From Vibrio astriarenae (lineage in GTDB: Bacteria > Pseudomonadota > Gammaproteobacteria > Enterobacterales > Vibrionaceae): a stretch of DNA of 64,000 nucleotides. Location of the stretch: contig NZ_CP047475.1 in NCBI RefSeq assembly GCF_010587385.1, positions 3,056,327-3,120,326 of the forward strand. Direction: 5' to 3'. Positions 8,728 through 58,029 of the stretch are shown piece by piece. Position 1 is the first letter of the stretch. Each line of letters begins with the position of its first letter. The notes under the pieces are model-generated. The model was not told where the DNA came from, did not search any database, and saw only the letters and a list, made by a program, of their open reading frames with translations. The position numbers and the translations under genes were made by a program.

Positions 8728-8804
<77 letters not shown>

Positions 8805-8869
8805 ACTTGTGTTTTATCTCTAGTGAGAAGGGAAACTTAAACGTTACCGTCCTAATTAAAAGAAATTAA

Positions 8870-8945
8870 TGGGGTGGCTAACGAGATTCGAACTCGCGAC
8901 CACCGGAATCACAATCCAGGGCTCTACCAACTGAGCTATAGCCAC
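8870..8945 (-). tRNA. tRNA-His (GUG)
   Basis: A 76-nt cloverleaf with encoded CCA, anticodon GUG in loop TTGTGAT, and D-stem GCTC/GAGC. The base at 8946 supplies the extra 5' G (G-1) required by histidyl-tRNA synthetase. Identical to 9135-9210. Confidence 0.97.
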
Positions 8946-8992
8946 CATCAATTTTTGCATTTACCGCTATATTATAGCCATAAAATAAAGAG

Positions 8993-9069
<77 letters not shown>

Positions 9070-9134
9070 ACTTATGTTTTATCTCTTTCGAGAAAGGAAG
9101 CTAATGCTACCATACCCATTCAAAAAAGAAAGAA

Positions 9135-9210
9135 TGGGGTGGCTAACGAGATTCGAACTCGCGACCACCGGAATCACAATCCAGGGCTCTACCAACTGAG
9201 CTATAGCCAC
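9135..9210 (-). tRNA. tRNA-His (GUG), second copy
   Basis: Identical to 8870-8945, with encoded CCA; the following C at 9211 encodes G-1. Confidence 0.97.
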
Positions 9211-9243
9211 CATTATTTTTTACCGATACATCCTCCAGGGCAA

Positions 9244-9320
<77 letters not shown>

Positions 9321-9632: not shown

Positions 9633-10043
9633 ATGTCTCGTAAAATGATTAGTGCATTTTTTGCCACCCTAGCTTTTTCTAGCGCAGCGATGACTGCTAA
9701 CGTAAGCCAAGCAGAATACGATGCCATTGAACAGCGCATCCAACCCGTAGGTAATGTTTACCTTGCAGGCAGTGAGCCGGTGGTTGAAGAAGTTGCATCA
9801 GGGCCACGTGATGGTGCTACGGTGTACAGTATGTTCTGTACCGCCTGTCACGGCACTGGCGTTACTGGTGCGCCGAAAACGGGTGACGCGGGAGACTGGT
9901 CGCCACGTATCGCACAAGGTATGGACGTGTTAGCTGACCACGCCATCAATGGCTTTAATGCCATGCCACCGAAAGGCTCGTGTATGGATTGTTCTGATGA
10001 CGAGATCATTGCTGCGATTGAGCATATGATTGAAGGGATTTAG
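9633..10043 (+). CDS. Cytochrome c5 family protein
   Basis: This 136-residue monoheme c-type cytochrome has a signal peptide (about 1-27, ending VSQA). The heme-binding motif C-T-A-C-H is at 69-73 and the probable axial ligand is Met111 (N-A-M-P-P-K-G). Two further cysteines, Cys117 and Cys120, lie in the C-M-D-C-S-D-D-E motif characteristic of cytochrome c5, where they form a disulfide. It should shuttle electrons in the periplasm. The start is not settled: ATG 9633 gives a standard signal peptide, but GTG 9618, preceded by GGAA, would add five residues. A 7-bp tandem repeat array begins at the base after its stop codon. Confidence 0.9.
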   Translation: MSRKMISAFFATLAFSSAAMTANVSQAEYDAIEQRIQPVGNVYLAGSEPVVEEVASGPRDGATVYSMFCTACHGTGVTGAPKTGDAGDWSPRIAQGMDVLADHAINGFNAMPPKGSCMDCSDDEIIAAIEHMIEGI

Positions 10044-26218: not shown

Positions 26219-26325
26219 ATAAAAAACGCCCCAGCTAAAAACTAGCTGGGGCGGCTGAATCAGCCTAATCCAATAACGTGAAACAAAAGGTCTGAAAGAT
26301 AGAACATCTTACCTCTGTACCCTAC
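26219..26325 (-). ncRNA. spf: Spot 42 RNA
   Basis: The minus strand matches E. coli Spot 42 almost base for base at the 5' end (GTAGGGTACAGAGGTAAGAT, then GTTCTATCTTTCAGACCTTT). It ends with a GC-rich terminator (CGCCCCAGCTA/TAGCTGGGGCG with six T). Spot 42 is a CRP-repressed, Hfq-dependent RNA that represses secondary carbon-source genes when glucose is present. Its place between polA and engB is the same as in enteric bacteria. The loop between the conserved stems differs from E. coli, as expected. Confidence 0.97.
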
Positions 26326-26436
26326 GCAGATAAATGTACAACAATCAGTCAGAAAATGAAACTGATTTTGTAGTTTTTTTTCATTAAAGTTTTATTAACT
26401 TACAGTAAACACCTGTCGTACCTAGGTTAATTAACG

Positions 26437-29682: not shown

Positions 29683-29890
29683 AAAAGCGGCTTCATTATG
29701 AGAGCCGCTTAGCAAATGAGGTTGTAATGATTTCATAAGAAATACAGCCACTACACCGAAAGCTACAAATTACACTGGAAGCAATGTGAGCAATGTCGTG
29801 TCTGAGTGAACAAAGTCATTGGCGCAGCTGAAGCTACCATGAAGCACCTTTCCACCCGATACTTCGCCTTTGCCTTTATTCCCTTTGACG
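29683..29890 (-). ncRNA. ryhB: RyhB iron-regulated small RNA
   Basis: The minus strand contains the conserved RyhB core, ACGACATTGCTCACATT followed by GCTTCCAGT, at about 29790-29815; it pairs with mRNAs of iron-using proteins. The 3' end is a strong terminator, AAGCGGCT/AGCCGCTT with TTTTCTTTTT (29685-29712). Promoter elements TTGCAT and TATTGT with 17-bp spacing put the start near 29890, giving about 208 nt. That is longer than the ~90 nt E. coli RNA but similar to V. cholerae RyhB, which lies in the same neighbourhood near polA and hemB. A Fur box overlaps the promoter. Confidence 0.95.
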
Positions 29891-34151: not shown

Positions 34152-35816
34152 CTATCGACGGTATGCTCGCCAGCTTAGTAGCCAAGCAACGCACCCACCA
34201 ACCGCACCAAACAGTGATAATTCATCATACTGATGGTGATTCATTAGTATCGCTGAACACACCATAAGTGTGGCACCGATACCAAATAAAAACTGTCCAG
34301 TCGCCTGATTGCGTTTGGAATCTCTATACCCTTGATAGAGCCTTTCCATCTTCACATTCATCGACTTACCTTGCTTCAAGCTATCGTACAGCAGTTCTGG
34401 CAATTCAGGCAATTTTTCCGCCCAAAATGGTGCGCGATCTTTCACTGCGTTCACAACCGCCATTGGGCCGACTTGATTCATCATCCACTTTTCAAGAAAC
34501 GGCTTCGCCGTATCCCATAAGTCTAGCTGTGGATAGAGTTGACGCCCTAATCCTTCAACGTAAAGCAGCGTCTTTTGCAATAACACCAACTGTGGCTGCA
34601 CTTCCATATTGAAGCGGCGGGCGGTATTGAACAGATTTAACAATACGTGGCCAAACGAAATCTCACACAGCGGCTTAGCAAAAATAGGCTCACAAACAAT
34701 ACGGATTGCGAACTCAAACTCATCGACATTGGTTTCACGTGGAACCCAACCCGACTCAACATGAAGCTCAGCAACACGTCGATAATCACGGTTAAAGAAC
34801 GCAAGAAAGTTCTCAGCAAGATAACGCTTATCGTCGCTGTTTAGCGTGCCGACGATACCGCAGTCCAGACCAATCCACTGAGGATTCTCTGGGTGTGCTT
34901 TTTCAACAAACACATTACCAGGGTGCATATCGGCATGGAAAAAACTGTCACGGAACACTTGAGTGAAGAACACACTCACACCGCGCTCGGCCAACAGCTT
35001 CATGTTCGTACCATTGGCACGCAAACCTTCGATATCGGAAACCTGATAACCATAGATACGCTCAGAAACCATCACCGTCTCATTGCTATGGTCGGTAATC
35101 ACCTCCGGTACGTAGAGCTCTTCACTGCCTTCAAAGTTGCGTCGCAGTTGAATCGCATTTGCCGCCTCACGGCGCAAATCCAGTTCATCAATCAGGGTCT
35201 TTTCGTATTCCCGTACGACTTCGACTGGCTTGAGCCGACGCGCTTCAGGAAGCATCTTAGCCACCAGGTGCGCCATGCGGAACATCAGTTTGAGATCCGC
35301 ATCAATCACCGGACGAATATCCGGGCGAATGACCTTGAGTACCACCTCTCGACCAGAGTCTTTTAGTTTGGCTGTGTGAACCTGAGCAATTGACGCAGAA
35401 GCCAGTGGCACCTCATCAAAGTCGGTAAACCACTGCTCAAGCTTACCACCTAACGCCTTTTCCATTTGTTCACGGGCCATTCGGCCATCAAAGGGGGCGA
35501 CGTTATCTTGCAACTCTGCTAGTGGGTCGGCGATGTGCGGCGGAAGCAGGTCTCTGCGCGTTGACATCATTTGGCCAAACTTAATCCATACTGGGCCAAG
35601 TTCTTGCAGTGCCTCACGTAAACGCTCGCCAAGCTCCTTGTCACTGTGACGATTTTTCATCCAAAACAGCGTTTTACGCATCAAACGCGGAGTTTTGAAG
35701 CGTTGCGAAACGTCCGCACTAAACGGAGATTGCTCGTTAGGCAGGAGATCATCCAAACCATACTCAAGATGGACTTGAATGATGCGATAGAGACGTTTTA
35801 GCTCTGACAGTGTCAT
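34152..35816 (-). CDS. ubiB: Ubiquinone biosynthesis protein UbiB (ADCK/ABC1 atypical kinase)
   Basis: A 554-residue member of the UbiB family. It has the K-x-G-Q motif ([16 protein letters not shown]), the Ala-rich loop A-S-A-S-I-A-Q-V-H, the catalytic-loop [10 protein letters not shown] and D-C-G-I-V-G. Two C-terminal transmembrane helices (about 503-550) anchor it to the inner membrane. It is an ATPase needed for aerobic coenzyme Q synthesis, perhaps extracting lipid intermediates. Its start overlaps the ubiJ stop by 4 bp, and ubiE-ubiJ-ubiB form one operon. Confidence 0.96.
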
Positions 35817-47434: not shown

Positions 47435-48619
47435 TTATGCGATTTCACCGTGCCAGCGCTTAGCTGATTGAGTCATCAGAACCAACAAGCCTGGTGCACT
47501 CAATAGCATTAGGAACACCATATGATGACTCGATTGTTCAAACCAGCCTTGAGTTAACGTGACTAATAGCCCGGCGCCTGTCATTTGAAACAGCCCTAAC
47601 AAGGCGGAAGCCGTTCCCGCTTTATCACCAAAGGGGGCAAGTGCTTGTCCTGCTGCTGCGCCAAGGATAAAGGCAAACCCTGTTGAAGCAATAAACACTG
47701 GCAACATAAATGCCATCGGTGTTGCATTGTTGGCACCGTATGCCATCAATACCGCCGCAAACACCAGCAAGCTGATCCCGATAATCAATGTGCGATAGGC
47801 GCCCATTGATTGCAGGAAGCGCGGCCCGATAAAACACGCGGCAATATTAATGCATGCATTAATGGTAAACCAAACGGTAAACTCTGACATACTCAGCCCT
47901 AACTGGCCCATCAACAAATTCGGTGCGGCGGTAACATAACCAAGAATCACCCCCATGGCGATCAAACACATCGAGGCATGGAACAGAAAGCTTGGGTGGC
48001 TCAGCACGTCTTTGTAGTGCTGAACATTGACGACTTTTACCGCTTCATCGGATCGCTTTTCACTTGGCATGAGTACCAGTACGATCAAGCCAACAACCAA
48101 AGCGAACACCGCCATAGTCGTAAAGTTCGCGCGCCAACCAAACCACTCCGTCAGCCAAGCGCCCAAGATAGGAGCCATCGCCGGTATAAAACAAATGATG
48201 CCATTGAGGTAGCTGATCATTTTGCCGCTCTCTTTCGCTCCGTAGATATCCCTCACAGAGGCAAACGCGGCCACTGATGTCGCACACGCGCCTAAACCTT
48301 GCAGTATACGTGCGACTAACAACCATTCGATACTTGAACTAAACCAAGCCAATACCGAGGCTACTCCGTAGATCGAAGCGCCAATCAAAGCCACTTGTTT
48401 GCGACCAACGCTATCAGCTAAGGGACCAGTAAATAGTTGCCCAACACCCATGGCAATCATAAACCAGGTAATCGTATCTTTGACTAAAGTAGGTTCCACG
48501 TGAAACTCCGCACCAATCTCCGGTAGTGCCGGTAAGTAAATATCGATACCGAGCGGACTAAACAGAACCAAAAGTGCGAGTACAGCAATCATAGATTTGG
48601 AACAGGTTGGAGATGGCAT
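47435..48619 (-). CDS. MFS multidrug exporter, Bcr/CflA family
   Basis: 394 residues with twelve predicted helices. Family marks include the first-helix S-P-L-G-I-D-I-Y-L-P-A-L-P, motif A G-P-L-A-D-S-V-G-R-K-Q-V in loop 2-3, and R-I-L-Q-G-L-G-A-C in helix 4. It should export drugs or metabolites with protons. A divergent LysR regulator and a palindrome in the gap suggest local control. A parS site is embedded in its fifth percentile of codons (E-F-H-V-E-P, about residues 38-43). Confidence 0.9.
   Translation of the reverse strand: MPSPTCSKSMIAVLALLVLFSPLGIDIYLPALPEIGAEFHVEPTLVKDTITWFMIAMGVGQLFTGPLADSVGRKQVALIGASIYGVASVLAWFSSSIEWLLVARILQGLGACATSVAAFASVRDIYGAKESGKMISYLNGIICFIPAMAPILGAWLTEWFGWRANFTTMAVFALVVGLIVLVLMPSEKRSDEAVKVVNVQHYKDVLSHPSFLFHASMCLIAMGVILGYVTAAPNLLMGQLGLSMSEFTVWFTINACINIAACFIGPRFLQSMGAYRTLIIGISLLVFAAVLMAYGANNATPMAFMLPVFIASTGFAFILGAAAGQALAPFGDKAGTASALLGLFQMTGAGLLVTLTQGWFEQSSHHMVFLMLLSAPGLLVLMTQSAKRWHGEIA
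48492..48507. other. parS centromere site 1 (within MFS gene)
   Basis: GGTTCCACGTGAAACT fits the degenerate chromosomal parS consensus NGTTNCACGTGAAACN. It is one of three sites in 6.9 kb. Confidence 0.75.
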
Positions 48620-48673
48620 GCAGGAACCTAAACTGAATAAGTGTAATTTGCCGTATATCGTATAGAATCAACA

Positions 48674-48702
48674 ATATGACTAGAAGTGGTAATTAGTCAT
48701 AT
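48674..48702. promoter_or_regulatory. Palindromic operator between MFS and LysR genes
   Basis: ATATGACTA (48674-48682) and TAGTCATAT (48694-48702) form a perfect 9-bp inverted repeat with an 11-bp spacer, 28 bp upstream of the lysR-type gene. It is a plausible LysR-type binding site. Confidence 0.65.
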
Positions 48703-48729
48703 CTATTATTCCCAATTGGAATGTAATGT

Positions 48730-49665
48730 ATGGCCAAAACAACCAGAGTTGATCTCAATCTCCTTATTCAACTTGATGTTCTTCTTGAAGAACTCAATGT
48801 CACTCGGGCTGCGAATCGACTGTGTTTAAGCCAGTCCGCTGTGAGTAAAAACCTTGCTCGTCTGCGACTGCAGTTTGATGACCCCCTATTCATCCGGACA
48901 CCGCAAGGCTTGAGCCCAACCCCTCGCGCACTCGCGCTTAAACCCAGAGTTCGGCAAATGGTGTATCAGCTGGACCAGCTTAATGAGCCCGAGCACTTTG
49001 AGCCCAAATCAAGTCAACACCGTTTTCAGCTCGCGGCCGTAGAGAGTGTATACCCACTGGTCTTGCCTTACTTTATGCCAGACGTCTTTAGCCATGCGCC
49101 AAACATCAACTTTTCCACTCACACTTGGGACAGCAATACCTTTAAACGCATTCTCGATGGTGAACTCGATATGGGGATCACGGGTAAGGATATTGATATC
49201 AACGACGCCAGACTCACGATGCTTGCTCCGAGTGGTATTGGTGAGCAAGAGATCTATCGTGATGAGCAGATGTGTGTAGTACGCAGCGATCATCCTGTCC
49301 TCAAACAGCCATGGACATTGGAGAACTATCTTAGCCTTCGCCATGTCCAAGTTCGTTGTGATGGCAATGATCGCTGGCTGCTTGATTATCGACTTGCCGA
49401 TCGAGGATTAGAGCGAGACATCGCCATCACGGTGCCAGACTTTAACAGCGCAGCCAGTTTATGTACCTATTCAGACTTAGTGTTCACCGCCCCAGCCCAC
49501 TTTACTAAGATGGTAAGTCATCAACTGGGGTTAAAACTACTGCCGCTGCCAATGAGATTTCCACCGATGGCATACACTCTATTTTGGAGTAAAGAGAGAG
49601 AATCTGACCCAGCAATAAACTGGCTCAAGAAGATTATCGTAGAAAAAACCGCCCATCTAAGATAA
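48730..49665 (+). CDS. LysR-family transcriptional regulator
   Basis: A 311-residue regulator. Residues 1-65 carry the winged helix-turn-helix (N-V-T-R-A-A-N-R-L-C-L-S-Q-S-A-V-S-K-N-L), and the C-terminal two-thirds is the effector-binding domain. The N-terminus (V-D-L-N-L-L-I-Q-L-D-V-L-L-E-E) is of the NodD/LeuO-like subgroup. It probably controls the divergent MFS exporter; the inducer is unknown. Confidence 0.88.
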   Translation: MAKTTRVDLNLLIQLDVLLEELNVTRAANRLCLSQSAVSKNLARLRLQFDDPLFIRTPQGLSPTPRALALKPRVRQMVYQLDQLNEPEHFEPKSSQHRFQLAAVESVYPLVLPYFMPDVFSHAPNINFSTHTWDSNTFKRILDGELDMGITGKDIDINDARLTMLAPSGIGEQEIYRDEQMCVVRSDHPVLKQPWTLENYLSLRHVQVRCDGNDRWLLDYRLADRGLERDIAITVPDFNSAASLCTYSDLVFTAPAHFTKMVSHQLGLKLLPLPMRFPPMAYTLFWSKERESDPAINWLKKIIVEKTAHLR

Positions 49666-49734
49666 AAAGAGTGTCTAGGCTTTCGCACTCTAATGGCGAT
49701 GCGAAGTGCAAAAACAACAAAGGAAACTATCCGG

Positions 49735-51525
49735 ATGGATCAACAAACACAGCAAAAGGTGACTCAACTACGTAATTGGTTGAGCGAGCAGCAATTTGAC
49801 GCTTTTATTCTGCCCCATGAAGACGAGTATCTAGGCGAATACATTCCTCAGCACAACGAACGCTTACACTGGTTAACTGGCTTCACGGGTTCCGCTGGCG
49901 CGGCAGTTGTGACGTCTACTAAGGCGGCGATTTTTGTTGATGGTCGCTATACCGTTCAGGTGACTAAGCAGGTTCCTGACACTGTGTTTGAATATCGCCA
50001 CCTTATCGAAGAGCCGGCATTAGATTGGATTGTTGATAATGTTGCAGAAAATGGCCGTATTGCCATTGACCCTCGTATGCACAATGCCAATTGGCTTGAA
50101 GCTGCTCAAGCTAAACTAAGCAAAAAGCACCAAGTGGTTCTGGTTGAAGCAAACCCTATTGACGCTTTATGGCATGATCGCCCTGCACCACAGTTATCGG
50201 AAGTGCGTTTGATGGAAACGCAAGCTGTCGGTCTAGATAGCCAAGCCAAGCGTACATCGATTGCCAAACTCGTCGAGCAAGCGGATGCAGATGCCGCGGT
50301 CATTACTGCCCTAGACTCAATTGCGTGGCTCCTCAATATCCGTGGCTTGGATGTATCACGCTTACCGGTTCTGCTCTCCCACGCCATTTTACACCGCGAC
50401 GGACAGGTCGAGTTTTTCATTGAACCCTCTCGTCTTCCTGATACGTTCAGCCAGCATGTCGGTGAGGGTGTGTCAGTTGTTGAGCCAGCACTACTTGAAC
50501 AAAAGCTTGAAGCGCTATCAGGCAAATCAGTGATTGTGGATCCTGCAACCAGCAATGCTTGGATTAAGCTCGTACTGCAAAATAGTGGCGCAAAAGTGAT
50601 TGCTCAAGCTGACCCTTGCCTACTGCCGAAAGCACGTAAAAACGACGTTGAAATTGCGGGTATGAAAGCCAGCCATGTACGTGACGGTATTGCGATGGTT
50701 AACTTTCTTTCATGGCTAGACAGTGAAGTCTCTCAAGGCAATCTATTTGATGAGGCACAACTTGCTGACAAGCTAGAAGCATTCCGACGTCTCGATCCAA
50801 CACTTATCGACCTGAGCTTTGATACCATTTCTGCAGCTGGCAGTAATGCCGCTATGTGTCACTATAATCATGAGAACCAACCTGAGCCAGGCAAGCTCAG
50901 CATGGACTCTTTATACCTTGTTGATTCTGGCGGTCAGTACCTTGACGGTACCACGGATATCACACGAACCATCGCTATCGGTCAACCGAGTGATGAAATG
51001 AAGCGCCAATTTACACTCGCTCTTAAAGGTCACATCGGTATTGCGCGTGCGCGATTCCCTGCGGGCACTCGTGGCTATCAACTTGATACGCTAGCTCGCC
51101 AGCACTTGTGGGCCGAAGGCTTTGATTATGACCACGGTACCGGTCACGGTGTGGGTCACTTCCTCAGTGTGCATGAAGGACCACAAAGTATCTCCAAGCG
51201 CCAAATCGATGTCGCATTAGAAAAAGGGATGGTGCTCTCTAACGAGCCGGGTTACTACCGTGCTGATGCATTCGGCATTCGCATTGAAAACCTTGAGTTG
51301 GTGGTAGAACTGCCGACACACGGTGACTTCCCAGTGCTGGCATTTGAGTCGTTAACTCGTTGTCCAATCGATGTGCGAAATATTGAAGTGGATCTGCTCA
51401 CCAAACCAGAACTGGCTTGGCTCAATGACTACCATGCTAAAGTATGGCATGACCTCCATGAGCAAGTTGAGGGTGATACTAAGCACTGGCTTGAGCGAGC
51501 AACACAGCCACTTAAACACAGCTAA
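49735..51525 (+). CDS. Xaa-Pro aminopeptidase P family, M24B
   Basis: A 596-residue metallopeptidase with two N-terminal creatinase-like domains and a C-terminal pita-bread catalytic domain. Metal ligands appear in order: D-S-G-G-Q-Y and G-T-T-D-I-T-R-T (two Asp), H-G-T-G-H-G-V-G-H (His), and E-P-G-Y-Y and I-E-N-L-E (two Glu). It removes the first residue from X-Pro peptides. The length matches eukaryote-like aminopeptidase P rather than the ~440-residue E. coli PepP. ATG 49735 is preferred over ATG 49693. Confidence 0.9.
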   Translation: MDQQTQQKVTQLRNWLSEQQFDAFILPHEDEYLGEYIPQHNERLHWLTGFTGSAGAAVVTSTKAAIFVDGRYTVQVTKQVPDTVFEYRHLIEEPALDWIVDNVAENGRIAIDPRMHNANWLEAAQAKLSKKHQVVLVEANPIDALWHDRPAPQLSEVRLMETQAVGLDSQAKRTSIAKLVEQADADAAVITALDSIAWLLNIRGLDVSRLPVLLSHAILHRDGQVEFFIEPSRLPDTFSQHVGEGVSVVEPALLEQKLEALSGKSVIVDPATSNAWIKLVLQNSGAKVIAQADPCLLPKARKNDVEIAGMKASHVRDGIAMVNFLSWLDSEVSQGNLFDEAQLADKLEAFRRLDPTLIDLSFDTISAAGSNAAMCHYNHENQPEPGKLSMDSLYLVDSGGQYLDGTTDITRTIAIGQPSDEMKRQFTLALKGHIGIARARFPAGTRGYQLDTLARQHLWAEGFDYDHGTGHGVGHFLSVHEGPQSISKRQIDVALEKGMVLSNEPGYYRADAFGIRIENLELVVELPTHGDFPVLAFESLTRCPIDVRNIEVDLLTKPELAWLNDYHAKVWHDLHEQVEGDTKHWLERATQPLKHS

Positions 51526-51579
51526 AAACCCATCGCTCAATACACACTATTCCGTATAAGTAAGAGCTCTGTATAAATT

Positions 51580-51612
51580 AAAGCGCCTCTTGGAAAACCA
51601 AGAGGCGCTTTT
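51580..51612. terminator. Bidirectional terminator between the aminopeptidase gene and thiH
   Basis: A perfect 14-bp stem AAAGCGCCTCTTGG/CCAAGAGGCGCTTT with an AAAA loop. Confidence 0.9.
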
Positions 51613-51620
51613 TGTTGGAC

Positions 51621-51636
51621 TGTTTCACGTGAAACA
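51621..51636. other. parS centromere site 2 (intergenic)
   Basis: TGTTTCACGTGAAACA, the canonical 16-bp palindromic ParB-binding site, lies just beyond the thi operon terminator. Confidence 0.93.
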
Positions 51637-51654
51637 CTAACGTGATAATCGGAA

Positions 51655-52767
51655 TTATCCTGAATAAGCAGAGTGCCAGTCACGCCAAACAGGGTCAAAC
51701 CCTTTGGCGCGAATGGCTTGCTCTACACACGAAGCGCTGCGCTCATCACTAATTTCGAACTGTTCTAACTCGACGTCATCCATCGCATACCCCCCGGGTT
51801 GCGTCTTGGAAGCCGCCGACATAGTCGTGATCCCCAATGGCAAAACCGCATCTCTAAACGCCTGCGATTCTCGAGTTGATAGTGACAATTCCACTTCTGG
51901 ATTAAGTAAGCGGTAGGCGCAAATTAGTTGAACTAACTGCTTGTCGTTCATTACTGACTTGGGTTGTAAACCACCCTCACAAGGGCGAAGGCGTGGGAAA
52001 GAGATCGAGTAACGCGTTTGCCAATAAGTACGCTCAAGGTAATCCAAATGAGCAGCAACATAGAAACAGTCAGTACGCCACTCTTCAAGACCAATCAACG
52101 CGCCAATCCCAATCTTATCGATGCCCGCCTTAGCCAATCGATCGGGGGTTTCCAGTCGATAGTCAAAGTCCTGCTTCTTACCACGAAGATGATGCTGAGC
52201 ATAAGTCGATGGGTGATACGTCTCTTGATAGACCATCACCGCATCCAAACCTAGCTGTTTGAGCTCAGCATACTGCTCTTGCTCAAGAGGCTGAACTTCC
52301 ATTGCAAGATAGTTAAACTGCTGCTTGATCACCGGGACCATTTGGCGGAAGTAGTTCATCCCGACTTTGGTTTCATGTTCACCCGTCACCAACAGCACAC
52401 TATCAAACTTCATCTTCTTAATCGCCGCTACCTCAGCCTCAATTTCTTGCTGATCGAGAGTACGGCGCTTAATGCGGTTCTCCATTGAGAAGCCACAATA
52501 GGTGCAAGCGTTAGCGCATAAGTTTGAAAGGTAGAGTGGAATGTACAGCGACATGGTGTTGCCAAATCGCTTACGAGTTAACGCATAAGACTGCTGCGCC
52601 ATCTGCTCCAAATATGGCTCTGCCGCTGGCGAAATGAGTGCCTTAAAATCTTCCAGATCACGCTTAGGCTTATTTAAGGCACGTTCAACATCATGGCCGG
52701 TCTTGCTCATGATTGAGAGCGATATATCGTCCCAATCCATTTGATTAAAGCGCTGCAAAAAACTCAT
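51655..52767 (-). CDS. thiH: 2-iminoacetate synthase ThiH
   Basis: A 370-residue radical SAM tyrosine lyase. The cluster motif is C-A-N-A-C-T-Y-C-G-F (C-x3-C-x2-C). It cleaves tyrosine to dehydroglycine for thiazole formation by ThiG under low oxygen. It is the last gene of the thi operon; GGGAG precedes ATG 52767. Other bacteria use ThiO instead. Confidence 0.96.
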   Translation of the reverse strand: MSFLQRFNQMDWDDISLSIMSKTGHDVERALNKPKRDLEDFKALISPAAEPYLEQMAQQSYALTRKRFGNTMSLYIPLYLSNLCANACTYCGFSMENRIKRRTLDQQEIEAEVAAIKKMKFDSVLLVTGEHETKVGMNYFRQMVPVIKQQFNYLAMEVQPLEQEQYAELKQLGLDAVMVYQETYHPSTYAQHHLRGKKQDFDYRLETPDRLAKAGIDKIGIGALIGLEEWRTDCFYVAAHLDYLERTYWQTRYSISFPRLRPCEGGLQPKSVMNDKQLVQLICAYRLLNPEVELSLSTRESQAFRDAVLPLGITTMSAASKTQPGGYAMDDVELEQFEISDERSASCVEQAIRAKGFDPVWRDWHSAYSG

Positions 52768-52783
52768 CGTGGCTCCCTAGCTA

Positions 52784-53551
52784 TTACAGCTCATCAAGGA
52801 ATGAGGTGAGTGGACTCGACGCCACCGCATGAGAAACCTGCCCAGCAAGCCCTGCCTCATAAGCAGTCCGTCCTGCTTCAACAGCTTGCTTAAATGCACG
52901 CGCCATAGCCACTGGGTTTGATGATGCAGCGATTGCCGTATTCACCAAAACGGCATCCGCGCCCATTTCCATTGCACGGGCGGCATGGGATGGCGCACCA
53001 ATACCCGCATCGACAACAACAGGCACATTCGCTTGGTCGATGATAATCTCGAGAAAATCGTGAGACGCAATGCCTTTGTTCGAACCAATTGGCGCTCCCA
53101 AAGGCATCACCGCGGCACAACCCACCTCTTCTAATCGTTTACATAGCACCGGGTCAGCATGGCAGTATGGCAACACTGTGAAGCCATCACGCACCAACTG
53201 CTCTGCGGCCGCTAGCGTTTCAATTGGGTCAGGCATAAGATACTTAGGGTCGGGATGAATCTCGAGTTTCAACCATGACGTACCCAACGCTTCTCGGGCT
53301 AAGTGGGCGGCGAAAATCGCATCTTTCGCGTTCTTGGCACCAGAGGTGTTAGGCAGTAGGCTCACGCCACACGCCACCAAAGGCTGGAGAATGTCATCTT
53401 GCTGGTCGTTCACATCCACACGCTTTAGCGCCATCGTCGCTAACTGACTCCCCGACTCTTGAATCGCTTGCGTCATCAACTGGCTGCTAGAGAATTTACC
53501 AGTACCGGTAAAAAGGCGAGATGAAAAGGTTTTGTCTGCAATCTTTAGCAT
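52784..53551 (-). CDS. thiG: Thiazole synthase ThiG
   Basis: A 255-residue TIM-barrel enzyme. It has the A-L-K-R-V segment with the Schiff-base lysine candidate, and [14 protein letters not shown] phosphate loop typical of ThiG. It assembles the thiazole ring from DXP, dehydroglycine and ThiS-thiocarboxylate. It lies 3 bp after thiS; GGAGG precedes the start. Confidence 0.96.
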
Positions 53552-53554
53552 GGT

Positions 53555-53764
53555 TTATCCTCCGGCAATTGCTTGAAACAGTGAAATCGCATCGCCTTCG
53601 CTAAGCAAGGTTGATGACCATTTATCACGAGAAATAACTTGGTTGTTAATAGAAAATACGCACCCTAAATTAGGCAACGAAAACTGACTAATAATATCTT
53701 CTAAGCTCGATTGAGCTTCGACTTGCTGCGCTTGGTCGTTAATCACAATGTTAATTAGGTTCAT
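53555..53764 (-). CDS. thiS: Sulfur carrier protein ThiS
   Basis: A 69-residue ubiquitin-like protein ending in Gly-Gly (F-Q-A-I-A-G-G), where ThiF adenylates it and sulfur is attached as a thiocarboxylate. It overlaps thiF by 4 bp. Confidence 0.95.
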   Translation of the reverse strand: MNLINIVINDQAQQVEAQSSLEDIISQFSLPNLGCVFSINNQVISRDKWSSTLLSEGDAISLFQAIAGG

Positions 53765-54552
53765 GATGCGATCTCATTATTATCATGGCTTGAATTTGAT
53801 GATGCACAAACCAAACAGGTACTATCCCTGCTTGTTGAGAGCTGTTGCCAGCCCATGGTTAATCCATCAAACAGGTGTAAGGTATTAGGCTTGAGTGCAA
53901 AGGCGCCGAGAGCGAGAAACTGAATGGCAGCTAGGGATTGATAATTACCCATGGTGCCAACCACTGGGCCGATGATGCCACTATCGCTACACTTACCCGC
54001 CTGTGGTAGCTCATCAAACGGATAGATACATCGATAGCATCCAGCACTTTTTTCTGATGCAAAGTCAAAGACACAGAACTGTCCCTGCCAACCGATAGCA
54101 GATGCAAATACCAACGGCGTTGATTGATTAAAGCAGACACGATTGATCAGCTGTCGAGATTGAATATTATCGGTACAATCAAGAACGACATCCGCTAGCA
54201 TCACCTCAAGGTTTAGCTGACTTTCGGCCAATCGCTTATTGATGACACGCACGTTCACCAACGGATTAAGTTGTCTAAGTTGCTCGGCCATTGCGGCGGT
54301 CTTGTCTTGTCCAACCTGTACATCGCGATACACCACTTGTCGCTGAAGATTACTCGAATCAACGCAATCATCATCCACCAGCACCACGCGGCCGACGCCT
54401 GCAGCGGCAAGATACAGACCTGCCGCAGAGCCTAAACCACCACAACCGATAATCAAAACGTGGCTATCAGACAAACGGGATTGACCGTGTTCTCCAATAT
54501 TGGGCAAAGCGATCTGACGTTGGTAGCGCAGGAATTCTTGGTCGCTAAGCAT
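53761..54552 (-). CDS. thiF: Sulfur carrier protein ThiS adenylyltransferase ThiF
   Basis: A 263-residue E1-like enzyme. It has the nucleotide loop [15 protein letters not shown] for ATP binding, and D-C-T-D-N. Zinc ligands are two Cys pairs: C-Y-R-C (near 175) and C-L-V-C (near 250). It activates the C-terminus of ThiS. ATG 54552 has GGAG seven bases upstream and overlaps thiE by 8 bp; ATG 54585 would overlap by 41 bp. Confidence 0.95.
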
Positions 54553-55798
54553 AGTTTGACTCCAATACGACGCGAGATCTATCACTCATTACCGCGTCAA
54601 ATTGCACCTTAACCGCCAGAGGGTCATCGGCCAATGTGATCGCTCTAACCACCGCTAAACTTGATACGCCACACTGCCATACTTGCTTAGCATTGGTTAA
54701 ATCGATACCGCCGATCGCTACCGTTGGATAACCTAAGTCACTCTCGCTAGTGTACGGAATCGAGTCTATCAGACTTTGATAGTGCGCCAGACGAATCAAA
54801 CCTTGTGGTTTTGAAGGCATCTGTTTGGTGGTGGTCGGGAATATATGCCCTAGAGCGATATAGCTCGGATTGATTTGAACAATACGCAATAGCTCATAGT
54901 AACCATGTGTTGATAAACCAAGGCAAATGCCTGCTTGGGCTAACTGGCTCAGGTTCGACTCTTCAATGTCCTCTTGCCCAAGATGCACGCCGTATGCACC
55001 ATGCTTAATGGCGAGTTGCCAGTAGTCGTTGATAAACACTTGAGCATCATACTCACGCCCCAGCTCAATCGCTCGCCTCACTTGAGCCTCTAGATCGGGT
55101 GTACGTGTATCTTTGATTCGCAGTTGTGTGGTTTTAACCCCTAGCTTGAGTACAGCTTCAATCCAATCAACGCTATCAACCACTGGATAAAGACCGATCT
55201 GGTGTTTATCCATGGATGGAAACTGCGTCTGTTCAGCATTCGCCGCCCACCCGACACGGACGTTCAAGCGGGCATCGTCCAAGATCGGTGTAGGAAACAC
55301 TTGGTAATCATGTGCCCATGTTTCACGTGAAACATTAAGCTGTGCTCGGGAAAATGTCAGCGCATCTTCAATCGGAAAATCGAGAGCGAGCAGTGTGACG
55401 ACCCAAGAAAAATGCTCCAGCGCATCGCGGTTGAACGACGAGTCATAACGAAGTGCGCGAGTTTCCCCTTGATGCTGCCAAAGGTCAATGTCGCATTCGC
55501 TATCTTCAATACCAACAAAGATTTGGTTCGAACGCGTATTACTCGCTCGATAATCATCAACCGTGAGCTGAGCGTTATAGTGAAACTGAAGATCCACGTA
55601 ATCATCACTATCAGAACCGAATCCTAGATCATGAGTAATCGTCGTCGTGGTGTTGTCGCTTTGAAGTTGAAAGCAAGATGTTGGGCTTACACCCAACATC
55701 ACTGAATCCGTTGCAAAACCATGTTGTTGTGCAACGGATAGACACTGCTGTAACTTCTCGGTTAATTCGATCTGCTGATGCGGAACGAGCAGTTGCAT
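54545..55798 (-). CDS. thiE: Thiamine-phosphate synthase ThiE with ThiD-like N-terminal extension
   Basis: 417 residues, about twice the usual 210. The C-terminal part (about 198-400) is a complete Thi[45 protein letters not shown] and A-I-G-G-I. It joins the pyrimidine and thiazole halves of thiamine. The N-terminal ~195 residues lack recognisable catalytic motifs but near 145-175 have [14 protein letters not shown], like the C-terminal helix of HMP-P kinase ThiD. It lies directly between thiC and thiF. A parS site encodes V-S-R-E-T in that helix. Confidence 0.9.
55319..55334. other. parS centromere site 3 (within thiE)
   Basis: TGTTTCACGTGAAACA, a perfect canonical parS, is inside the coding sequence of the ThiE N-terminal extension. 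Confidence 0.93.
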
Positions 55799-57748
<1,950 letters not shown>

Positions 57749-57868
57749 TTATGACAAATTTGGGATAAAAATGCTTGGCGGATAGATGCGACAAGAGGCA
57801 TCGAAAGAGAAGTTGAGCGGTTCTTTCGAGCTTAATAAGGTTCACATAGAGCTTGGTGAACGCTTTCT

Positions 57869-57950
57869 CTTGTTCCCTTCGCTGGTATTAACCAGATCAG
57901 GTTCAACGGATCCCGAATGAACGGTCTCAGCCTAAAGGCACTCCGACAAG
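57869..57950 (-). promoter_or_regulatory. TPP riboswitch (thi box)
   Basis: The minus strand reads CTTGTCGGAGTGCC, then GGCTGAGA, GATCCGTTGAACCTGATCAG, TTAATACCAGCG and GGGAACAAG, the complete conserved TPP aptamer with P1 pairing CTTGT/ACAAG. Downstream, GTTCAC (near 57856) and GTGAAC (near 57840) can form a hairpin in the expression platform 100 bp before thiC. TPP binding should switch off thiCEFSGH. Confidence 0.97.
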
Positions 57951-58029
57951 TATCAGCTCACTATGTTGCTGTGAGTGGTTTGATTATAAGAAAATGTTGG
58001 CGACAAACCAATCGGATCACTGAATATTG

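What the first reader, a model, noticed from the sequence alone, without database searches (positions are those of the whole stretch)
48492..55334. Three parS sites in 6.9 kb mark the ori-proximal centromere
TGTTTCACGTGAAACA occurs perfectly at 51621-51636 and 55319-55334, and GGTTCCACGTGAAACT, fitting NGTTNCACGTGAAACN, occurs at 48492-48507. They lie 3.1 and 3.7 kb apart, about 9-16 kb from dnaN. V. cholerae chromosome 1 also carries a small cluster of parS sites near the origin, so this is likely the segregation locus of the main chromosome.
Basis: partly seen in the sequence, partly recalled or inferred. Interest (0 to 1): 0.7.

Follow-up and report, generated by a model that had tools for sequence, protein, structure and literature searches.

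The report
Vibrio main-chromosome centromere, written inside genes
This is the DNA handle (parS cluster) by which a Vibrio-type bacterium pulls its main chromosome apart before division; the kind is well known, but here three of four copies sit inside protein-coding genes, and at one of them the handle, not the protein, fixes the codons.

Summary
These four are the only exact matches to NGTTNCACGTGAAACN in the 4.80-Mb genome, 17.7-38.3 kb from an oriC-like region followed by mnmG-rsmG-parA-parB. C2 carries a different motif instead (12 of 12 parS2-like sites). So this is the ParABS1 centromere of the main chromosome; V. cholerae ParB1 ChIP-seq on its three sites is published.

What I add: the cluster is tied to the thiamine operon. 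In the best 80 of 189 confirmed ThiE loci the site is inside thiE, always in one frame (VSRET/VSRGT/VPRET), 80 of 80, with a partner just after thiH in 79. The thiE codons are frozen at DNA level. The ubiB site is all-or-none: 17 of 23 genomes with ubiB within 33 kb of thiE, 0 of 21 with it farther on the same contig; VPRET replaces mostly VP[x]DT. Phylogeny leaves that link unproven. parS inside genes is known elsewhere. No ParB binding was measured in this organism.

The parts
34152..35816 (-). ubiB (ABC1 kinase-like, Pfam PF03109; the name ubiB is recalled), host gene of site 4
48492..48507 (+). parS1 site 3, inside the MFS gene (read as EFHVEP, in another reading frame than in thiE)
47435..48619 (-). 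Bcr/CflA-type MFS transporter gene, host gene of site 3
51621..51636 (.). parS1 site 2, perfect palindrome, intergenic, just downstream of the thiH stop
51655..52767 (-). thiH
   Evidence: TIGR02351, above cut-off
52784..53551 (-). thiG
   Evidence: PF05690
53761..54585 (-). thiF-type adenylyltransferase
55319..55334 (.). parS1 site 1, perfect palindrome, inside thiE, codons 156-160 (GTT TCA CGT GAA ACA = VSRET), before the TMP-synthase domain (residues 208-387)
54545..55798 (-). thiE with a ~190-residue N-terminal extension (PRK12290 type)
55799..57736 (-). thiC
57857..57955 (-). TPP riboswitch upstream of thiC, heading the thi gene row that holds sites 1 and 2
   Evidence: RF00059, 78.8 bits
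62947..63987 (-). dnaN; it continues in frame across the contig end into C1:1, which supports a circular C1

Best explanation
The four sites are parS1, the ParB1-loading sites of the ParABS system of the main chromosome. ParB1 (C1:12578-13495) binds each 16-bp palindrome, closes as a CTP-dependent clamp, slides off and fills the surrounding kilobases; ParA1 then moves the ori region of the replicated chromosome apart. Inferred from relatives: binding, spreading and segregation. The core pair (thiE linker and thiH end, 3.6-3.9 kb apart) is an old fixed unit of Vibrio that travels with the thi operon; the MFS and ubiB sites are accessory and come and go. In thiE the DNA site, not the protein, fixes the residues.
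For: Exclusivity: 4 of 4 exact genome places are in this window. A gap between mioC and mnmG with 4 DnaA-box-like motifs and up to 13 GATC in 300 bp, then mnmG-rsmG-parA-parB; dnaN reads through the contig junction. ParB1 matches solved ParB/Spo0J/Noc structures and has G170, K171, S172, R173, N178, G201, R204 and GERRWRA. Genus sample: 60 of 61 genomes carry the motif; 56 of 59 with a usable ThiE match have it in, or within 600 bases 5' of, the matched thiE stretch, 55 of these 56 with another site 3.6-3.9 kb downstream. Named loci (best 80 of 189 confirmed): 80 of 80 in thiE in one frame, 79 of 80 within 185 bases after the thiH match. In 81 ThiE, four parS codons are the four most codon-conserved of 135 conserved columns (0.98-1.0 against means of 0.47 and 0.39 for other 4- and 6-fold codons); the only residue changes (S to P once, E to G 15 times) fall on consensus N positions. 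V. cholerae ParB1 ChIP-seq: three peaks at three parS within 7 kb, about 18 kb covered, no other binding (passages of PMC6238139).
Against: No ChIP or genetics for this organism was at hand. parAB1 lies 21-42 kb from the sites. ParB1 has H at position 162, where PMC7383237 lists a conserved parS-contacting Q. ParA was not above the cut-off of any NCBIfam model listed. Three of 59 genomes with ThiE lack a site at thiE (G014, G021, G036), one of 56 lacks the downstream partner (G012), and the reduced genome G025 has no exact site.
Confidence: 0.96

Rival explanations
1. Only the two perfect palindromes are working parS sites; the asymmetric sites in the MFS gene and in ubiB are protein-coding coincidences.
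For: Both deviate from the full palindrome (3 mismatches of 16). 25 of 74 sequences with the MFS gene do not fit even the symmetric consensus there (two of the 25 by one base), and 43 of 61 genomes lack the ubiB site.
Against: The ubiB state is all-or-none: 18 genomes with 0 mismatches, none with 1, one with 2, 42 with 3-6. Where the palindrome differs in the MFS gene it is often still a palindrome (8 sequences with GTTCCACGTGGAAC). In V. cholerae all three peaks bind, the weaker two modelled with 3 and 29% lower affinity.
Confidence: 0.12
2. The thiE site is kept because ThiE needs VSRET in its linker, so conservation says nothing about a centromere.
For: V-[SP]-R-[EG]-T is present in all 81 ThiE.
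Against: Eight extended ThiE of another genus of the family have variable residues there (one, L112, shares ET) and no exact parS in their loci. Codon choice is fixed at 4- and 6-fold degenerate codons, and the alignment is gappy on both sides.
Confidence: 0.03
3. The palindrome is an operator for a thiamine-operon regulator or part of a terminator.
For: Sites 1 and 2 lie in or at the end of the thi operon, near a hairpin with T-run at about 51580-51615 (read by eye).
Against: The operon has a TPP riboswitch. Two sites are in unrelated genes. In other genera the same motif sits at least 21 kb from thiE on the same contig (G065, G069, G074, G093).
Confidence: 0.02

Closest known systems
parS1 cluster of Vibrio cholerae chromosome 1 (ParABS1)
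   Same: Three sites within 7 kb (PMC6238139 passages), about 60-65 kb from oriC1 (PMC9140986 and PMC4091711 passages). V. mimicus, its close relative (recalled), has sites in thiE, right after thiH and in the MFS gene, spanning 6.9 kb.
   Different: Here the three sites are 17.7-24.5 kb from oriC and a fourth in ubiB widens the cluster to 20.6 kb.
Intragenic parS sites of Pseudomonas aeruginosa
   Same: Nine of ten predicted parS lie within coding sequences; the authors mutated them without changing the proteins (PMC4368675 passages).
   Different: Codon-level conservation across species was not part of the passages seen; whether the host genes correspond was not checked.
Extra parS in repABC replicons of Alphaproteobacteria
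   Same: The authors suggest that extra parS are positively selected even within coding sequences (PMC9040568 passage).
   Different: Plasmid-type replicons, not a main chromosome.
Universal chromosomal parS (Bacillus subtilis type)
   Same: parS1 is described as identical to it (PMC3141006 passage).
   Different: Nothing at the level of the motif; host genes were not compared.
parS2/ParB2 of Vibrio chromosome 2
   Same: Also a ParABS system; the genome has a parB on C2 and 12 parS2-like sites, all on C2.
   Different: Different motif (its consensus is recalled), different replicon.

Membership tests
Chromosomal ParABS centromere (parS1) | Match to the parS consensus beyond chance | tested here: met
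   4 places, shuffle mean 0.02; reversed control 0 in the genome
Chromosomal ParABS centromere (parS1) | Clustered near oriC of one replicon only | tested here: met
   17.7-38.3 kb from the oriC-like region, 0 of 4 on C2
Chromosomal ParABS centromere (parS1) | parA-parB1 on the same chromosome, next to rsmG/mnmG | tested here: met
   (parB 195 bits, cut-off 58.45; ParA is assigned from several families, none above its cut-off)
Chromosomal ParABS centromere (parS1) | ParB with parS-type reading residues (R173, G201) and the CTP motif GERR | tested here: met
   against PMC7383237 passages; one other contact, Q162, is H here; GERR as CTP motif is recalled
Chromosomal ParABS centromere (parS1) | ParB binds and spreads at the sites | not testable with these tools
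   needs ChIP-seq; seen in print here for V. cholerae
Chromosomal ParABS centromere (parS1) | Same locus as in other Vibrio | tested here: met
   80 of the 80 loci kept (of 189) have the thiE site
parS2 (chromosome 2) | TTTACANTGTAAA motif (recalled) | tested here: not met
   12 of 12 matches are on C2, none in this window

The most novel reading that the evidence does not exclude
Gene position relative to the centromere dictates protein sequence: a gene near the thi-borne core centromere (ubiB, the MFS gene) can be recruited as an accessory centromere, its residues being rewritten to spell parS (VP[x]DT to VPRET in UbiB), and it loses the site when rearrangement carries it more than about 35 kb away. 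Accessory parS would then be under selection only near the ParB domain of the core pair. A further, untested step is that transcription from the TPP riboswitch through the thiE site links thiamine supply to ParB loading.
Probability: 0.3. Interest if true: 0.55.

Novelty: new member of a known kind. Interest (0 to 1): 0.3.

Why it matters
It gives the main-chromosome segregation locus of this organism with exact coordinates. It also offers a clean case of overlapping codes: a centromere that sets codons, and perhaps amino acids, in metabolic genes. The thiE/thiH pair is so constant in the Vibrio genomes sampled that it can help to locate the centromere in draft genomes. The ubiB site gives a natural experiment on how far from a core centromere an extra parS is still kept.

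Tried and rejected
Weak matches (up to 3 mismatches, including 61876 in the recF end and C1:3037909) were dropped: 33 genome places against 29 for the reversed control. 'Codons fixed' in the MFS gene and ubiB was not used as evidence where groups were formed by having the site, because that is circular; only the thiE test (all 81 sequences, no selection on the site) and the all-or-none pattern were used. The ubiB-distance link was tested on a quick ubiB tree without the site's own codons: 7 changes on the best tree, at least 3 forced by starred branches, but only 2 independent pairs on starred branches (6 on all), median p = 1, and long branches are flagged; it is an association, not proof. 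Six genomes with ubiB within 33 kb lack the site (G012, G013, G033, G040, G048, G057). I looked for ubiB at the accessory sites of other genera; the five loci fetched for this (G063, G070, G107, G111, G119) gave no ubiB match: in G063 the site lies between two other reading frames, in G107 in recF; the other three were not examined further. Linear ubiB-thiE distances of 2.7-3.7 Mb in 13 genomes become 137-214 kb if the contigs are circular (12 of 13, the thirteenth's length was not looked up). The papers of Yamaichi 2007, Livny 2007 and Baek 2014 are recalled and could not be read. Searches: parS with thiE and Vibrio, 0 papers; parS with ubiB, 1 unrelated; parS with synonymous and coding terms, 0; two wider listings (15 of 55 and 10 of 14 shown). 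That parS can lie inside genes is in print; on seeing this I lowered interest from 0.35 to 0.3.

Full report
Observation. The three sites are exactly as described. Shuffled windows give a mean of 0.02 matches. In the whole genome (4,799,333 bases, 2 contigs) there are four places, all here, and the reversed pattern gives none. A simple base-composition estimate expects 0.28 symmetric matches in 4.8 Mb.

Place on the chromosome. The window is the last 64 kb of C1, which has 3,120,326 bases. dnaN at the window's end continues in frame into the first bases of C1, so C1 is most likely circular. The first 20 kb of C1 hold dnaA, mnmE, mioC, a gap with 4 DnaA-box-like motifs and up to 13 GATC in 300 bp, mnmG, rsmG, parA and parB. 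Taking that gap as oriC, the sites lie 17.7, 21.4, 24.5 and 38.3 kb away. C2 has its own parB and 12 places with the parS2-like motif TTTACANTGTAAA, none of which is on C1 (consensus recalled).

ParB1. It matches ParB/Spo0J/Noc chains of solved structures. By the numbering of PMC7383237 (passages read) it has G170, K171, S172, R173, N178, G201 and R204, and H instead of Q at 162. The paper calls R173 and G201 absolutely conserved in ParB.

Where the sites sit. Site 1 is inside thiE, site 2 directly after the thiH stop, site 3 inside an MFS transporter gene, site 4 inside ubiB. The thi operon has a TPP riboswitch.

Conservation of the core pair. A ThiE scan of named genomes confirmed 189 loci, of which the tool kept the best 80, all titled Vibrio, Vibrionaceae or Vibrionales. 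Of these, 80 have an exact site inside thiE, always at an offset divisible by three, and 79 have one within 185 bases after the thiH match; L087, a contig end, holds no thiH. One of the six search peptides began with the last two residues coded by the site. A second sample of 61 genomes of the genus overlaps the first (for example G022, G029 and G056 show the contig lengths or site places of L073, L033 and L076), so it is not independent. In it 60 genomes have at least one site and there are 191 in all. Of 59 genomes with a usable ThiE match (G025 has none, G054 only a weak one), 56 have a site in thiE, or within the 600 bases that I allowed 5' of the matched stretch, and 55 of these have another 3.6-3.9 kb downstream. 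The distance to rsmG, used as a stand-in for oriC, runs from 20 to 72 kb in 11 genomes of known contig length, so the pair moves while its inside stays fixed.

DNA-level constraint. In 81 aligned ThiE (80 loci and the window) the codons GTT, TCA, CGT, ACA of the site are the four most codon-conserved of 135 conserved columns: 1.0, 1.0, 1.0 and 0.98, against means of 0.47 (53 other 4-fold columns) and 0.39 (31 other 6-fold columns). The residue changes seen, S to P once and E to G in 15, are those that hit the N positions of the consensus. Eight extended ThiE of another genus have variable residues there and no exact site in their loci; six extended ThiE with the motif, four of the genus and two of further genera, all read VSRET. 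Related sequences are not independent, so these figures are descriptive.

Accessory sites. A looser count finds an exact site in or within 60 bases of the MFS match in 42 of 73 loci. In ubiB, 18 of 61 genomes have the exact site: 17 of 23 where ubiB is within 33 kb of thiE on one contig, 0 of 21 where it is 38 kb or more away on one contig, 1 of 17 where the two are on different contigs or thiE was not usable. With the site UbiB reads VPRET; without it mostly VP[x]DT with 3-6 mismatches; only G025 has 2 and none has 1. On a ubiB tree without these codons the trait changes 7 times, at least 3 by starred branches, but independent pairs are too few for a test.

Outside the genus. Of 24 genomes of 12 other genera, 23 have exact sites. 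Two genera have the thiE site (G063, G068); in one the site lies just upstream of a short thiE (G090, G107, G123). In four genomes with both on one contig (G065, G069, G074, G093) the sites are 21-31 kb from thiE. Whether the sites of the other genera lie near oriC was not checked.

What is known. In V. cholerae ParB1 binds three sites within 7 kb, covers about 18 kb and binds nowhere else (PMC6238139, passages). The cluster is about 60-65 kb from oriC1 and moving it rearranges the chromosome (PMC9140986 and PMC4091711, passages). That these V. cholerae sites lie in the thi region is recalled, and supported by the same three positions in V. mimicus. In P. aeruginosa nine of ten predicted parS lie in coding sequences (PMC4368675, passages), and selection for parS inside genes has been suggested for repABC replicons (PMC9040568, passage). 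The finding is thus a new instance of a known centromere. The codon-level test in thiE and the ubiB pattern are the parts that I did not find in print, with the main older papers unread.

Noticed in passing
G025 (1.0 Mb genome of the genus): The only one of 61 genus genomes without an exact parS1; no ThiE match either, and ubiB there has a 2-mismatch form. Whether it lost parAB1 was not checked.
   Followed up: partly
L130-L135, L137, L138 near position 10000: Several species have one more perfect parS; where both are on one contig (L130-L135) it is 44-57 kb from the nearest other site; in L131 it is intergenic between a 198-aa and an 828-aa reading frame, the latter GGDEF/EAL-like by eye. The window's genome has no such site.
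   Followed up: partly
L206:4415: In another genus a parS-type site lies in recF, in the stretch coding WGVFHVEP.
   Followed up: no
window 54545-55798: ThiE carries a ~190-residue N-terminal part without a Pfam match; another genus of the family has a short ThiE with parS just upstream.
   Followed up: partly
window 8728-9320: tRNA array Pro-His-Pro-His-Arg that looks like a tandem duplication.
   Followed up: no
window 26220-26335 and 29738-29805: Matches to Spot 42 and RyhB sRNA families.
   Followed up: no
G076: A genome of another genus, rated 100% complete in about 30 contigs, with no match to the pattern at all.
   Followed up: no
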